Positions 46,336 through 59,003 of a stretch of 64,000 nucleotides of DNA are shown in pieces. The position numbers were made by a program, and so were the translations under genes. The notes under the pieces were generated by a model. The model worked only from the letters and a program-made list of their open reading frames with translations. It was not told the DNA's origin and did not search any database. The stretch covers positions 56,799-120,798 of the forward strand of contig RDZG01000058.1 of NCBI GenBank assembly GCA_004293915.1. The letters are read 5' to 3'. Each line of letters starts with the position of its first letter. The first letter of the stretch is position 1. The stretch is from Bacteroidota bacterium (GTDB taxonomy: Bacteria; Bacteroidota; Bacteroidia; Cytophagales; UBA9547).

Positions 46336-47727
46336 ATGAAAGATTACGGAAAGATTATTGAAAACATTGAAATTTTAGATGTTGCTGCCGAAGGAAAATG
46401 TATAGCCAAAATTGATGGAAAAGTGATTTTTGTGCATCATACAGCTCCAGGCGATGTGGTTGATGTAAAAATTATTGGCAGAGATAAGAAGTTTTTAGAA
46501 GCTGTTCCTGTACTTTTTCATTCGTATTCAAAACAAAGAGTAGAACCACATTGTGTTCATTTTGGCGTTTGTGGAGGTTGCAAATGGCAACATATTGATT
46601 ATAAATCGCAGCTCGTTTTTAAACAAAAGCAAGTGAAAGATGCACTCGAACGCATTGCAAAAGTACAATTTCCTGAAATTTTACCAATAATTGGCTCAAG
46701 CCAAACCACTTTTTATAGAAATAAGTTAGATTTTACTTTTTCTAATAAACGTTGGTTCGAAACCAAAGATAATGACAATGAAACTAAAGATGCTAATGCA
46801 CTCGGATTCCATATACCCGGTAGATTTGATAAAATTTTGGATATCGAAAAATGTCATCATCAAGCAGATCCATCAAATGCAATCAGAAATGGACTTAAAA
46901 GCTTTTGTTTAGCACAAAATTTTGACTTTTTTGATATTAAAAATCGCTCGGGTTTGATGCGAAATTTGATTATCCGCACCACTTCTACAGGAGAAATAAT
47001 GGTTATCGTTCAGTTTTTTTATAATGATAAAAAAGCTGTAAATGCTGTTATGGATTTTTTAAAATCAAATTTCAAAATTGATGCTTTATTATACATTATT
47101 AATGAAAAAGGAAACGAAACCTATCAAGATTTAGAAATTTTGGTTTATGCAGGCAAAGATTATATTATGGAAGAAATGGAAGGTTTGAAGTTTAAAATCG
47201 GACCAAAATCTTTTTATCAAACCAATTCGGCACAAGCCTATGAATTATATAAAGTTGCTCGTCAATTAGCTGATATTCAACAAAATGATATTGTTTATGA
47301 TTTATATACAGGCACTGGAACGATTGCCAATTTTGTGGCAAAACAAGCTAAAAAAGTTGTTGGAGTAGAATATGTGCCTGCTGCAATAGAAGATGCAAAA
47401 GTTAATTCAACTTTAAATGCAATCACAAATACTTCGTTTTTTGCTGGTGATATGAGCAAAGTTTTTACTAATGATTTTGTCAAAAAAAATGGAACACCAA
47501 ATGTAATAATTACTGATCCGCCACGTGCAGGTATGGATACACCTGTGATTCAGGTTTTGTTGGATTTGGCTGCTCCCAAAATTGTTTATGTAAGTTGTAA
47601 TCCAGCTACACAAGCTCGTGATTTGGCTTTTTTAGATGCAAAATATCGTGTAGAAGCTGTTCAACCTGTGGATATGTTTCCACATACGCACCATGTTGAA
47701 AATGTGGTATTGTTAAAGTTGAAGTGA
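46336..47727 (+). CDS. rlmD: 23S rRNA (uracil-C5)-methyltransferase, RlmD family
   Basis: TRAM-like N-terminus, CVHFGVCGGCKWQHIDYKSQL, YDLYTGTGTIANF, DPPRAGMD, YVSCNPATQARDL. Confidence 0.95.
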   Translation: MKDYGKIIENIEILDVAAEGKCIAKIDGKVIFVHHTAPGDVVDVKIIGRDKKFLEAVPVLFHSYSKQRVEPHCVHFGVCGGCKWQHIDYKSQLVFKQKQVKDALERIAKVQFPEILPIIGSSQTTFYRNKLDFTFSNKRWFETKDNDNETKDANALGFHIPGRFDKILDIEKCHHQADPSNAIRNGLKSFCLAQNFDFFDIKNRSGLMRNLIIRTTSTGEIMVIVQFFYNDKKAVNAVMDFLKSNFKIDALLYIINEKGNETYQDLEILVYAGKDYIMEEMEGLKFKIGPKSFYQTNSAQAYELYKVARQLADIQQNDIVYDLYTGTGTIANFVAKQAKKVVGVEYVPAAIEDAKVNSTLNAITNTSFFAGDMSKVFTNDFVKKNGTPNVIITDPPRAGMDTPVIQVLLDLAAPKIVYVSCNPATQARDLAFLDAKYRVEAVQPVDMFPHTHHVENVVLLKLK

Positions 47728-47737
47728 TCGCTCGCTA

Positions 47738-48041
47738 AGATGCAAAGTCGCTAAGTTTGCTACCCAGAAAAAAAATCTAAAAAAAGATGCAAAGTCGCTA
47801 AGTTTGCTACCCTGAAAATAAATCTTTAAAAGATGTAAAGTCGCTAAGTTTGTTACCCCGAAAATAAATCTAAAAAAGATGCAAAGTCGCTAAGTTTGCT
47901 ACCTCGAAAATAAATCTAAAAAAGATGCAAAGTCGCTAAGTTTGTTATCTCGAAAATAAATCTTAAAAAGATGCAAATTCGCAAAGTTTGCTACCCTGAA
48001 AAAAAATCTTTAGAAGATGCAAATTCGCTAAGTTTTTTACA
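47738..48041. repeat. 46/47-bp tandem repeat, ~6.5 copies
   Basis: Units AGATGCAAAGTCGCTAAGTTTGCTACCCTGAAAATAAATCTAAAA start at 47738, 47785, 47831, 47877, 47923, 47969, 48015. Confidence 0.95.
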
Positions 48042-48071: not shown

Positions 48072-49991
48072 CTAAATCAGTCCTTTTAGGCTTGGGAATT
48101 CAAAACGAAAAGATGTACCTATGCCTTCATCAGTCGAAAAATCCATTTTCCCATTGAGTTTGTTTACAACGCCTTTCACGATGTAAAGTCCCAAACCTGC
48201 TCCTTGTGAGTCGTTTGTGCCTTTATAAAACATTTCGAACATGCGTGGTTTTATTTCGTCTCTTATTCCTTTTCCGTTGTCTTGGATTAGTATTATTGAT
48301 TTTTCTAAGCTTTGTGTGATATGAATATTTACAGTTGATTTGTCTTTTGTAAAATCGGCATGTGATATTCCGTTTGAAATCATATTAGTAAGTAAAATCC
48401 CAATTCGGCTCGAATCTGAAAAGAATTGATTTTCGCCAACAATGGTGTGCGTTATTTCAACTTTAGGGAAATTTTCATGATAAGCCAATTCTGTTAACGA
48501 TTTATCTAATAATATTCTAAAATCAATTGATTCGGCTAAAATCTCACTTCTTGCATTTGCCGAATAACTAGTTAAATCTCTCAAAACCAACATCAATTTA
48601 TCCACACTTTTGTGCATTTTTTGCAAAAAAGTGGGAATATTTTCCATTGTTTTTTCCATTTTAGAAATATTTATTAAACCTAAAACAGACGTCAATGGAG
48701 CTTTTAAGTCGTGTGATGAACGGTAAATAAATTTATCTAATTCATCGTGTGCAATTACTAAAGCTTCGCTTTGAGCTTTAATTTCTTTGTTTTGTGATAT
48801 CAGCTGTTGATTATATTCTTTTGTTTTTTTGTTATTTATGTATTGTATAAATGTGAGCAAACCAACAAATCCCAACACAATTCCAACGATAATTAAATTT
48901 CGATTTAATACTTCACGATGTGCTTTGGCTTCGTTTAAGGCTTTGTCTTTCTCTAATAAATCAATTTCGGTTTGCTTTTTTTCGAGTTCAAATTTCGATT
49001 CTAATTTTCCAAATTCTTTGTTTTTCGAATCACTAAAAATCGAATCTTTTACAGCAGCCGAAGCCTCGAAATAAGCTAAAGCTGATTTGAAATCGCCTTT
49101 GGCTTTATAGATTCTTGAAATAGATTGAATAGCTAGTTGCATATCAGATTTTGAGCCAATTTCTATTGCCAAATCCAAACTTTGATTAGAATAATCGAGT
49201 GCTTTATCCAGTTTTTTTGTTTGGAGATATAAATTACCAATATTGTTTAAGCATGTTACAGAGCCTGTTTTATCGTTTAATTCGTTAGTTATTTTTAAAG
49301 CTTTAAAGTAATTTTTTTCAGCTTCCACATATTTTTTTTCATAAGTATAAACATTGCCAATGTTTATCAATGCTTTATAAATATCCTTTGTATGCTCTCT
49401 TTCTGTACTGATTTTTATGGCTTCTTGGTAGTTTTTGATTGCCATTTTATAATCCTGTAAATTTGTATATACATTAGCAATGTTTGTTAAACAGCCCGAA
49501 ATGGTTTCTTTGTCGTCAATTTCTTTTGCCAATGTTAACGATTTAGAGAAGTTATCTAATGCTAAATTATATTCGCTATAATCATAATTTATAGCACCAA
49601 CATTCATTAAGCACTTGGCAATCAGGAGTTTGTTATTGAGTTTTTCGGCAATTTGCATGGCTTTTATGATGTTTTCCATTGCTTTTGGATAGTCGCTATG
49701 ATACATATAATATATACCAATTCTGCGATACGATTCAGATTTTTGAGGTTCTAAACCTTCTTTTTCTGAAATTGTTAAAGCTTGCATAGCAAATTCGTGC
49801 GATTGATTTGGGTCGAAGTCAATCGAATTTTTGCTTAATTCGAGCAAAATTCTAACTTTTTCTGTTTCTGATTTCGCCAAAATAAGTTCTTTAATTAATG
49901 CAGAATCGACTTGCGAAAAAATTAGCGAATTACTAAAAGTTAATACTAAAAATACGATTATGTATTTCAATTTTCTCATGTCTAAAAACAA
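48072..49991 (-). CDS. Tetratricopeptide-repeat sensor histidine kinase
   Basis: Signal peptide, ~6 TPR units, one TM, FIYRSSHDLKAPLTSVLGL (HisKA), IQDNGKGI, GAGLGLYIVKG. Confidence 0.93.
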   Translation of the reverse strand: MFLDMRKLKYIIVFLVLTFSNSLIFSQVDSALIKELILAKSETEKVRILLELSKNSIDFDPNQSHEFAMQALTISEKEGLEPQKSESYRRIGIYYMYHSDYPKAMENIIKAMQIAEKLNNKLLIAKCLMNVGAINYDYSEYNLALDNFSKSLTLAKEIDDKETISGCLTNIANVYTNLQDYKMAIKNYQEAIKISTEREHTKDIYKALINIGNVYTYEKKYVEAEKNYFKALKITNELNDKTGSVTCLNNIGNLYLQTKKLDKALDYSNQSLDLAIEIGSKSDMQLAIQSISRIYKAKGDFKSALAYFEASAAVKDSIFSDSKNKEFGKLESKFELEKKQTEIDLLEKDKALNEAKAHREVLNRNLIIVGIVLGFVGLLTFIQYINNKKTKEYNQQLISQNKEIKAQSEALVIAHDELDKFIYRSSHDLKAPLTSVLGLINISKMEKTMENIPTFLQKMHKSVDKLMLVLRDLTSYSANARSEILAESIDFRILLDKSLTELAYHENFPKVEITHTIVGENQFFSDSSRIGILLTNMISNGISHADFTKDKSTVNIHITQSLEKSIILIQDNGKGIRDEIKPRMFEMFYKGTNDSQGAGLGLYIVKGVVNKLNGKMDFSTDEGIGTSFRFEFPSLKGLI

Positions 49992-53380: not shown

Positions 53381-54132
53381 ATGAGTAACTTTAACACAAG
53401 CCACAAGCCACAAGCCACAAGCCACAAGCCACAAGCCACAAGCCACAAGCCACAAGCCACAAGCCACAAGCCACAAGCATTTTTTGCTTTAAAGGATTAA
53501 TATTTTTAGGAACTATATTTTTTTTAACCGGATGTAAATCTGGAAATCCGTATGAGTTTTGCAGCATAAGTTGGCCATCCTTTGGATTTCCAGAATTAAT
53601 TAATGGTTTGCTTGGAGGGATTATAACGGGTCTAATAGCTTCCATTTTACTAACCTTATATTTCTACAATCTAAAGCCTAAAATCAAACTGCCATGTTGC
53701 ATTGATATTAGTGAATACAATATTTTAAAAATTAAAATTGAAAATGAAAATCATTTGCGAAAGTGGTATTATTGCTTCTTTAGAAAAAAATCAATAATAA
53801 ATTTAAAAATAGAAGTAGCAATTTTTAAAATAGAAAATAGAAAAACTACAACGATACATCTTGAAATAGTCAAAGATGAATTTCTATTTATCCCTTCCCA
53901 AAACAAATTTATTGATGCTGACGATTGGCATTATAGAATTTTCAAAACCAGTAATGAAGACAGCGATAAAATTGAAAATAAACTAGCAGAAGACTTTCCA
54001 AATAGAAAACTACGACTTCGTGTTTTTGGACAAGATGAAAATTCAATGGTAGGTACTATTGTCGAAGGAATATATCTTTTCAACGAAAGAAACTCAAAAT
54101 GTTTAACATTAACCACCAAAAAAAATAATTGA
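53381..54132 (+). CDS. Lipoprotein with N-terminal heptad-repeat region; start codon currently out of frame (candidate phase-variable gene)
   Basis: Frame open 53395-54132: ..HKPQATSHKPQATSIFCFKGLIFLGTIFFLTGCKSGNPYEFCSISWPSFGFPELINGLLGGIITGLIAS..; ATG at 53381 is in the adjacent frame upstream of the repeats. Confidence 0.65.
53395..53478. repeat. Heptanucleotide tandem repeat (CCACAAG)~12
   Basis: Eleven perfect CCACAAG units 53401-53477, preceded by a partial CACAAG. Confidence 0.98.
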
Positions 54133-54152: not shown

Positions 54153-55742
54153 ATGAAAACAATATCGAAAATTATCGGCTTACTTTTATTAAGTATAGTA
54201 TCTTTTAGCCAAAACTTAACTTTTTCGCCTGCTAGTGGAACACAAGTTATTGCTGCTAGTGGTGGGTCTTTTAGATTACAGATAACACAACCTTTTCCAG
54301 GAGGAATTAGTCTTTATAATTTCAATATTGGGATTAGTTCTAGTAGTTCAACACAAACGAATCCTACTATAACATTACAAGCTAATAATGGTCCTGCTAG
54401 AACACTTAAATTTAATATTTATGGAAATGGTGTTACATATGATTATGTCGTATCACAATTAGGGATTAATTGTACAACATTGTCGGGTGTAAATCCTACT
54501 AGCATTACTGGTAATATAAATCCATGTTTAAATGAAACAGTTACTTATTCATTACCTACCCTTTCAACTACTGGTACATGGTATAATATTAAATTTGGTA
54601 ATATCGAAGGTATTTTCTATGATACAACTACTGATGGTGGGAATTTTAATGTAAATTTCACTTTTACAGGATTGTTTGATATCCAAATTGTAAGAAGAAC
54701 AAATTGTTTTTATGGTACTAATGTTGGATTTTGGGGTAATGTTAATGTTAATCCTTCAAATCCTACTATATCAGGAATGAATACTTTTACAACAGGAAGT
54801 CCAATCAATTTTACTTCTACTTTAGAAAGTGGCGAATCTAATATATGGAGATTTAATTCTAATACCTTTACTGGTACTGCATTTAGCACTACTTTGGGGA
54901 TAGGTTTATACACCTTAACCGCTCAAAATTTCAATGGTAATTGCCCTTCGAGTTTGGTTTCACGATCGTTTACAGTTAAATCTAGGCAAACCATTGCTGG
55001 CATATCATCTTTACTTAGCGGATATACCTATCCAGTACCCAATATTAGTTTAGCCAATGTAACAGCAAGTTCTGGGTTGCCTGTAAGCGTAGTGAGTTAC
55101 GACCCATCGGTAATATCCATTTCGGGAAATGCTATTTATTTCTTAAAAGCAGGTGTTACAACCATCACGGCATCACAAGCTGGCAATAGTCAGTACTTTG
55201 CAGCACCACCGTTGGTGTATAATGTAGCTGTATCCAAAGGTTCTTCTGTGGTATCGGTTACATCATCCATACCATCAGTAGTTACTGTGGTGGGTACAGG
55301 CACCAGTTTCACCGTTTCTGGGCTGAGTTCTGTGGGTTCTCCCTTGCAGTATTCGCTTTCGGGTGGCGGCATAGTTACAAATAATGTTATTACACTTTCT
55401 CAACCAGGCACTTTTACACTCACTGTTTCAAGTCCTGAAAACGAAAAATATCAGTCTTCCACCTTGAGTTTTGTAATCAATGTGGTTACAGTTGCTGGTA
55501 TTACCAATATTATAAGTAACGAATACCAACGAGATGGAGGTTTTGAAGTTTACCCCAATCCTTCAACTGGTACTTTCACTACAAAATCTTTTGGCATATC
55601 AAGCAACGAAATTAAGTATGTAGAGGTATTTAGTATCGAAGGCATTAAAATTACTAATTTAGCCTTAGGAGTAGCTCAATTGCCTAAAGGTATCTATATA
55701 TTAAAATATGGCACTCATGTACGAAAATTAATACTAGAATAG
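54153..55742 (+). CDS. Ig-like/MBG-type surface protein with T9SS type A sorting domain
   Basis: Signal peptide MKTISKIIGLLLLSIVSFSQ; C-terminus FEVYPNPSTGTFTTKS..KYVEVFSIEGIKI..LPKGIYILKYGTHVRKLILE. Confidence 0.88.
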   Translation: MKTISKIIGLLLLSIVSFSQNLTFSPASGTQVIAASGGSFRLQITQPFPGGISLYNFNIGISSSSSTQTNPTITLQANNGPARTLKFNIYGNGVTYDYVVSQLGINCTTLSGVNPTSITGNINPCLNETVTYSLPTLSTTGTWYNIKFGNIEGIFYDTTTDGGNFNVNFTFTGLFDIQIVRRTNCFYGTNVGFWGNVNVNPSNPTISGMNTFTTGSPINFTSTLESGESNIWRFNSNTFTGTAFSTTLGIGLYTLTAQNFNGNCPSSLVSRSFTVKSRQTIAGISSLLSGYTYPVPNISLANVTASSGLPVSVVSYDPSVISISGNAIYFLKAGVTTITASQAGNSQYFAAPPLVYNVAVSKGSSVVSVTSSIPSVVTVVGTGTSFTVSGLSSVGSPLQYSLSGGGIVTNNVITLSQPGTFTLTVSSPENEKYQSSTLSFVINVVTVAGITNIISNEYQRDGGFEVYPNPSTGTFTTKSFGISSNEIKYVEVFSIEGIKITNLALGVAQLPKGIYILKYGTHVRKLILE

Positions 55743-58416: not shown

Positions 58417-58635
58417 TTGATGGAAACAGTTCTGGTTCAAATTAATAACAACAAAGCTTACAGGCTCTTGGAAGATTTAGAGGATTTGAATATCATTACT
58501 GTAATTAAAAAAAACATTCCTCCCGCACAAAAGATATCTGAAAAATATGCAGGTAAACTTCCTTCTGATATTGCAGATGAATTACAAAACTACGTGAGCC
58601 AAAGTCGAAAAGAATGGAACAACCAAACTATTTGA
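58417..58635 (+). CDS. VapB-like antitoxin
   Basis: 72-aa protein overlapping the start of a PIN-domain gene. Confidence 0.75.
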   Translation: MMETVLVQINNNKAYRLLEDLEDLNIITVIKKNIPPAQKISEKYAGKLPSDIADELQNYVSQSRKEWNNQTI

Positions 58636-59003
58636 TAGACACTAATATTGTAATCGATTACTTGGGTAAAAAAATACCTACTTTGGGTATGTCTTTTATG
58701 AATAACGTCATCGATAACACTCCTTGTTTGTCAGTTGTATCTAAAATAGAAATATTAGGATACAATGCACCTAAAGAACACTACAAATTGCTTACTGATT
58801 TTATGGATGATTCCACCGTTTTAGATTTAAACTCTTTTGTTGTGGATGAGAGTATTGAAATACGCAAAAAGTATAAAACTAAACTTCCCGATGCTATTAT
58901 TGCTGCTACTGCTTTAGTTTTTGACCTTACACTAATTACTAGAAATACAAAAGACTTTGACTCAATTCAAGGATTAAAATTGATTGACCCTTGGAAAATT
59001 TAA
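58614..59003 (+). CDS. PIN-domain (VapC-like) ribonuclease toxin
   Basis: NYLIDTNIVIDYLG..SVVSKIEILGY..KLPDAIIAATALVFDLTLITRNTKDF: acidic PIN residues conserved. Confidence 0.92.
   Translation: MEQPNYLIDTNIVIDYLGKKIPTLGMSFMNNVIDNTPCLSVVSKIEILGYNAPKEHYKLLTDFMDDSTVLDLNSFVVDESIEIRKKYKTKLPDAIIAATALVFDLTLITRNTKDFDSIQGLKLIDPWKI

What the first reader, a model, noticed from the sequence alone, without database searches (positions are those of the whole stretch)
53381..54132. Heptanucleotide (CCACAAG)~12 tract inside a lipoprotein reading frame: candidate ON/OFF phase-variable gene, currently OFF
Seen directly: the lipoprotein frame (lipobox FLGTIFFLTGCKS) is open from 53395 to 54132 and runs through the repeat (PQATSHK heptads), but has no ATG/GTG/TTG before TTG 53608, which lies after the lipobox. 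The ATG at 53381 (MSNFN) sits just before the repeat in the adjacent frame (53476-53381=95, remainder 2). Because 7 is 1 mod 3, gaining one unit or losing two joins the ATG to the lipoprotein. The repeat has no stop in any frame. Slipped-strand phase variation in tandem repeats is established for surface genes of other bacteria; applying it here is inference.
Basis: partly seen in the sequence, partly recalled or inferred. Interest (0 to 1): 0.82.

Follow-up and report, generated by a model that had tools for sequence, protein, structure and literature searches.

The report
Slippage switch in membrane-protein gene start
A DNA stutter of twelve identical 7-base units sits between the start codon and the signal sequence of a small membrane-protein gene and puts it out of frame; related species carry the same kind of stutter at the start of a large secreted protein, in frame in one and out of frame in two, so this lineage probably uses such stutters as on/off switches.

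Summary
53395-53478 is a perfect (CACAAGC)x12 array. The lipobox frame is open 53395-54132, ATG 53381 is out of frame with it, and 1, 4, 7, 10 or 13 units join them. With one unit the product begins as a normal-length signal peptide, MSNFNTSIFCFKGLIFLGTIFFLTGC.

The protein is an orphan, so copy-number variation at this locus could not be tested. Perfect 7-mer arrays are abundant in this Cytophagales genus and mostly lie outside genes, so an array alone proves little.

The comparison that changes the odds: all three genomes of the genus have one homologue of a long secreted (T9SS) protein, each with an array of one identical unit (AAATTAC) between ATG and signal peptide: 8.3 copies and in frame in G002; 5.9 and 7.1 copies and out of frame in G000 and G001. 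Heptamer frame-switching is the best reading for the genus and the likely one for this gene; it works like E. coli neuO.

Not shown: actual switching, selection for it, or surface exposure of this protein, whose C-terminal domain looks cytoplasmic.

The parts
53381..53383 (+). ATG, most likely start codon of the switched gene; 11 bases before the array
   Evidence: First ATG of the frame that joins the lipobox at 1+3k units; inference
53395..53478 (+). (CACAAGC)x12.0 perfect heptanucleotide array, stop-free in all six frames; three units encode TSHKPQA
53479..53607 (+). Signal/lipobox segment (IFCFKGLIFLGTIFFLTGCKS...), 43 open codons without ATG/GTG/TTG
   Evidence: Chance of being open about 0.033; codon score above 99.1% of random open segments and at the 8.6th percentile of genes
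53395..54132 (+). Open reading frame of the orphan two-helix membrane protein (in-frame product 245 aa with 10 units, 252 aa with 13)
   Evidence: hydrophobic helices by Kyte-Doolittle and low-confidence model; no relatives
53381..53500 (+). 39-codon out-of-frame product of the assembled 12-unit state (MSNFN...FFALKD*)
54153..55742 (+). Following gene, 20 bp downstream: protein with signal peptide and T9SS type A sorting domain, possibly co-transcribed
   Evidence: TIGR04183 above cut-off, Pfam Por_Secre_tail just below cut-off; co-transcription is inference

Best explanation
The array is a simple-sequence contingency tract inside the 5' coding region of a gene for a small signal-peptide-bearing membrane protein. 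Translation starts at ATG 53381. DNA-polymerase slippage adds or removes 7-base units, so one copy number in three (1, 4, 7, 10, 13) reads through the array as TSHKPQA heptads into the signal/lipobox sequence and gives the whole protein; the others stop after a short peptide. The assembled 12-unit copy encodes a 39-residue peptide, hence OFF. Shown: array, frame arithmetic, open signal segment without its own start, and the same layout with differing frame states in a homologous long protein of three congeneric genomes. Inferred: that slippage happens here, that cells of both phases coexist, and that switching is selected.
For: Frame simulation, and the one-unit state in frame with a normal-length signal peptide. 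Open startless signal segment. Of 645 ORFs of at least 150 aa, 14 have a startless extension of 40 or more codons; two of these hold heptamer arrays, each followed directly by a signal sequence. Same layout in single-copy homologues in G000, G001 and G002, identical AAATTAC unit, 5.86/7.14/8.29 copies, OFF/OFF/ON, although the bodies are only 33-39% identical. Both heptads are basic and without acidic residues (TSHKPQA, KLQITNY), as an n-region needs; chance for a stop-free 7-mer is about 0.23 each. The mechanism is established for the heptamer of neuO (PMC3046976).
Against: No relative of this gene, so no copy-number variation seen at this locus. Heptamer arrays are common and mostly untranslated in this genus, including one of the AAATTAC unit (L228). 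In the ON state at 10 or 13 units the n-region is long for a signal peptide. Codon usage of the gene is only weakly coding-like. No read data.
Confidence: 0.6

Rival explanations
1. Neutral or decaying version of the same anatomy: a heptamer array, of a class that expands freely in this genus, grew inside the 5' end of a dispensable orphan gene and knocked it out of frame. Slippage may still flip it, but nothing selects for switching.
For: Arrays are abundant and at least one is species-specific; the gene is an orphan with weak codon bias; it is out of frame in the assembly.
Against: The open frame is intact through 217 codons after the array with no other lesion; the homologous long-protein arrays were kept in the same place in three diverged species.
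Confidence: 0.2
2. The array lies in the untranslated leader, like most arrays of the genus, and translation begins downstream at TTG 53608 (or a rare ATT at 53479). Copy number would at most tune spacing or expression.
For: Other arrays abut start codons without being translated: L072, L084, L094, L228. TTG 53608 would still give a one-helix membrane protein.
Against: 43 open codons with a signal/lipobox sequence lie between the array and TTG 53608, and the second helix begins before that TTG. ATT is a very rare start codon. In the three homologous long proteins, too, the signal peptide follows the array directly.
Confidence: 0.17
3. Assembly artefact: the true array is in frame and the copy number is miscounted by a short-read assembler.
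For: The genome is a 156-contig draft, and other heptamer arrays lie at contig ends.
Against: The array is 84 bp, inside a 120-kb contig, and short enough to be spanned by 150-base reads. An artefact of this kind would change the ON/OFF call but not the architecture.
Confidence: 0.03

Closest known systems
neuO of Escherichia coli K1 prophage CUS-3 (PMC3046976)
   Same: Heptanucleotide array (AAGACTC) in the 5' coding region, two bases after the start codon; stop-free; three units encode one heptad; one copy number in three gives full-length protein
   Different: NeuO is a cytoplasmic O-acetyltransferase whose heptads raise activity; here the array precedes a signal sequence, the protein is an unrelated orphan, and switching has not been shown
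Simple-sequence contingency loci of Neisseria, Haemophilus and Campylobacter (reviewed in PMC11868660)
   Same: Short tandem repeats not divisible by three near the 5' end of genes for exported or surface products
   Different: Those use mostly 1-5 base units in host-adapted bacteria (my knowledge; PMC4692102 abstract); here 7-base units in an uncultured Cytophagales
Genome-wide heptamer repeats of Beggiatoaceae, Cyanobacteria and some Bacteroidetes, and long simple sequence repeats of Mrazek 2007 (PMC4679880)
   Same: Many perfect heptamer arrays, mainly intergenic, often just upstream of start codons; heptamers the commonest long class
   Different: Here units differ from locus to locus, and a few stop-free arrays lie inside coding sequence before signal peptides

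Membership tests
SSR-mediated translational phase-variable (contingency) locus | Tandem array with unit length not divisible by three inside the 5' coding region | tested here: met
   7-bp x 12 between ATG 53381 and the signal sequence; that ATG 53381 is the start is inferred from the open startless segment
SSR-mediated translational phase-variable (contingency) locus | Copy number sets full-length versus truncated product | tested here: met
   In silico: full length only at 1, 4, 7, 10 and 13 of 0-15 units
SSR-mediated translational phase-variable (contingency) locus | Copy number varies between relatives or cells | not testable with these tools
   No orthologue of this gene found and no reads. 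Met for the analogous long T9SS-type protein of the genus: 5.86, 7.14 and 8.29 copies, OFF/OFF/ON
SSR-mediated translational phase-variable (contingency) locus | Reversible high-frequency switching shown by experiment | not testable with these tools
   Needs reads or culture
NeuO O-acetyltransferase family | Left-handed beta-helix hexapeptide acyltransferase sequence | tested here: not met
   No Pfam or NCBIfam match and no significant PDB sequence match; works like neuO, is not a member
Genome-wide heptamer (LSSR) arrays | Many perfect 7-mer arrays well above chance, dispersed in the genome | tested here: met
   11 in 993 kb (G000), 25 in 779 kb (G002), 10 in 146 kb (G001), 0 in 400 kb of another genus; Markov control near zero
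Bacterial lipoprotein (signal peptidase II substrate) | Basic n-region, hydrophobic stretch and lipobox ending in Cys near the N-terminus | tested here: inconclusive
   FKGLIFLGTIFFLTGC fits, but only in the ON frame, with Cys at residue 47 or 54 at 10 or 13 units, and a second helix follows

The most novel reading that the evidence does not exclude
This uncultured Cytophagales genus runs a heptanucleotide contingency system: a pool of freely expanding 7-mer arrays supplies slippage switches, and stop-free arrays that fall into the signal-peptide n-region of exported proteins (a long T9SS-type protein in all three species, this orphan in one) are retained as on/off switches of the cell envelope.
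Probability: 0.45. Interest if true: 0.7.

Novelty: new member of a known kind. Interest (0 to 1): 0.56.

Why it matters
Slipped-strand phase variation is known chiefly from host-adapted pathogens, and in Bacteroidota the described phase variation is mostly DNA inversion (PMC11868660). Three searches of the held library for it in Cytophagales, in Flavobacterium or with the type IX secretion system found nothing relevant, which is not proof of absence. Here the layout recurs at the start of a homologous long exported protein in three congeneric genomes with different frame states. That makes a simple test possible: count units in metagenome reads. The extended n-regions also offer a natural series for asking how long an n-region the export machinery tolerates.

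Tried and rejected
(1) Copy number in orthologues of this gene: none in genus, family, 391 genomes of the order, plasmids, phages or viral contigs; only marginal hits, most with stops, in 396 genomes of the phylum. (2) CCACAAG as a dispersed family: three or more units only in this genome of 391; 19 viral contigs have it, about 3.5-5 units where measured, in contexts I did not pursue. (3) Fold of the protein: single-sequence AlphaFold model, mean pLDDT 41, too poor for a fold search. (4) My first ORF-based count called the AAATTAC arrays intergenic. That was wrong, because the ORF caller started those genes downstream of the array; a scan for open frames through arrays corrected it. The 'mostly outside genes' counts carry the same weakness for arrays just upstream of a gene, but most units there contain stop codons. 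(5) RNA structure in the array: none. (6) Sigma-70 promoter scan: near chance.

Full report
What is there. The window is bases 56799-120798 of contig 30 of a 3.85-Mb, 156-contig draft genome. At 53395-53478 lie exactly twelve perfect copies of CACAAGC. ATG 53381 reads 39 codons and stops. The frame open from 53395 to 54132 carries a hydrophobic stretch ending in LTGC, and its first conventional start codon is TTG 53608, after the lipobox. Such an array is far above chance.

Frame arithmetic. I rebuilt the 5' end with 0 to 15 units. Only 1, 4, 7, 10 and 13 units give the full protein; 12 gives a 39-residue peptide. The one-unit state, the simplest ancestor, is in frame and reads MSNFNTSIFCFKGLIFLGTIFFLTGCKS, a signal peptide of normal length. 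This favours growth of the array inside the coding sequence over an array that merely lies upstream, although the frame alone has a one-in-three chance.

Is the segment after the array coding? Between the array and TTG 53608 there are 43 stop-free codons (chance about 3% at this composition), with a codon score above 99% of random open segments and within the lower range of real genes. Among 645 ORFs of 150 aa or more in the sampled genome, 14 have a startless extension of 40 or more codons. Two of these contain a heptamer array, and in both a signal sequence follows the array directly. A start at or before the array is the best reading.

The protein. It is an orphan: no match in Pfam or NCBIfam, nothing above noise in PHROGs or PDB sequences, none in plasmids or phages, and none at E<=1e-3 in 391 genomes of the order. 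It has two hydrophobic helices. The second is followed by KPKIK, so by the positive-inside rule (general knowledge) the C-terminal domain should be cytoplasmic. 'Surface lipoprotein' is therefore doubtful, although the lipobox is good. A protein with a T9SS type A sorting domain starts 20 bp downstream and may be co-transcribed.

Genome context of the array. Perfect heptamer arrays of many different units are a feature of this genus: 11 in 993 kb of G000, 25 in 779 kb of G002, 10 in 146 kb of G001, none in 400 kb of a genome from another genus of the family. Most are outside called ORFs and contain stop codons, and many abut gene ends or start codons. At least one seems species-specific: the G001 arrays in L174 have no counterpart at the matching gene end in G000 and G002. 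So an array near a gene is not, by itself, a switch.

The decisive comparison. A scan for arrays with an open frame running through them into a long ORF, plus an upstream ATG, found the window gene and two others, L056 in G000 and L177 in G001, both with unit AAATTAC. A pattern search then found the G002 counterpart, L219. A homology search finds one such gene per genome in the genus and none in the rest of the family. L056 has a T9SS sorting domain, and L177 is homologous to it through to the C-terminus; the C-terminus of the G002 gene was not read. The bodies are only 33-39% identical, but all have ATG, one to six bases, the AAATTAC array (5.86, 7.14, 8.29 copies) and then the signal peptide. 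G002 is in frame; G000 and G001 are out of frame by one unit. The aligned in-frame versions share the heptads (two of the three rows are hypothetical in-frame translations, so that identity follows from the identical DNA unit). The same unit can also sit untranslated before an ATG (L228), so position matters and not the unit.

Mechanism and confidence. The best explanation is translational slipped-strand phase variation, as established for neuO, whose AAGACTC heptamers lie two bases after the start codon and are ON at multiples of three (PMC3046976). This gene works like neuO but is not a member of that protein family. I give 0.6 to a working coding frame switch here, 0.2 to a neutral or decaying version of the same anatomy, 0.17 to an untranslated array with a downstream start, and 0.03 to an assembly artefact. 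Sequence alone cannot tell selected from neutral switching; read-level copy-number counts can.

Novelty. Heptamer contingency loci and genome-wide heptamer arrays are both known (PMC3046976, PMC4679880). What appears new is their combination in a Bacteroidota genus, at the n-region of signal peptides of exported proteins, kept across species for a long T9SS-type protein. I rate this a new member of a known kind.

Noticed in passing
L056:7701-11839 (-), L177:8000-8404 (-), L219:1493-3021 (+): Homologous long T9SS-type proteins in three congeneric genomes with an AAATTAC heptamer array between ATG and signal peptide; in frame in G002, out of frame in G000 and G001. A stronger phase-variation candidate than the finding itself.
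   Followed up: yes
G000, G001, G002 samples: Genus-wide wealth of perfect heptamer arrays of many different units, often abutting stop or start codons; absent from 400 kb of G006 of the same family.
   Followed up: partly
L062:1-99 (C30:1-99), L168:1-41 (C22:1-41), L111:4174-4299 (G002 C60 end): Contigs end inside heptamer arrays, which suggests that longer arrays break the assemblies and are undercounted.
   Followed up: no
window 47737-48035: 6.5 copies of a 46-bp tandem repeat between the gene ending at 47727 and the converging histidine-kinase-like gene 48072-49991.
   Followed up: no
window 58614-59003: Small ORF that looks by eye like a PIN-domain (VapC-like) toxin; not tested.
   Followed up: no
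L099:358-2557: Five tandem copies of a small gene family (about 124-161 aa, shared C-terminal half) upstream in the G002 contig that carries the DAHP synthase gene.
   Followed up: no
G234: A genome of the order has 22 matches to the reversed control pattern (GAACACCx3), so another heptamer array family exists there.
   Followed up: no
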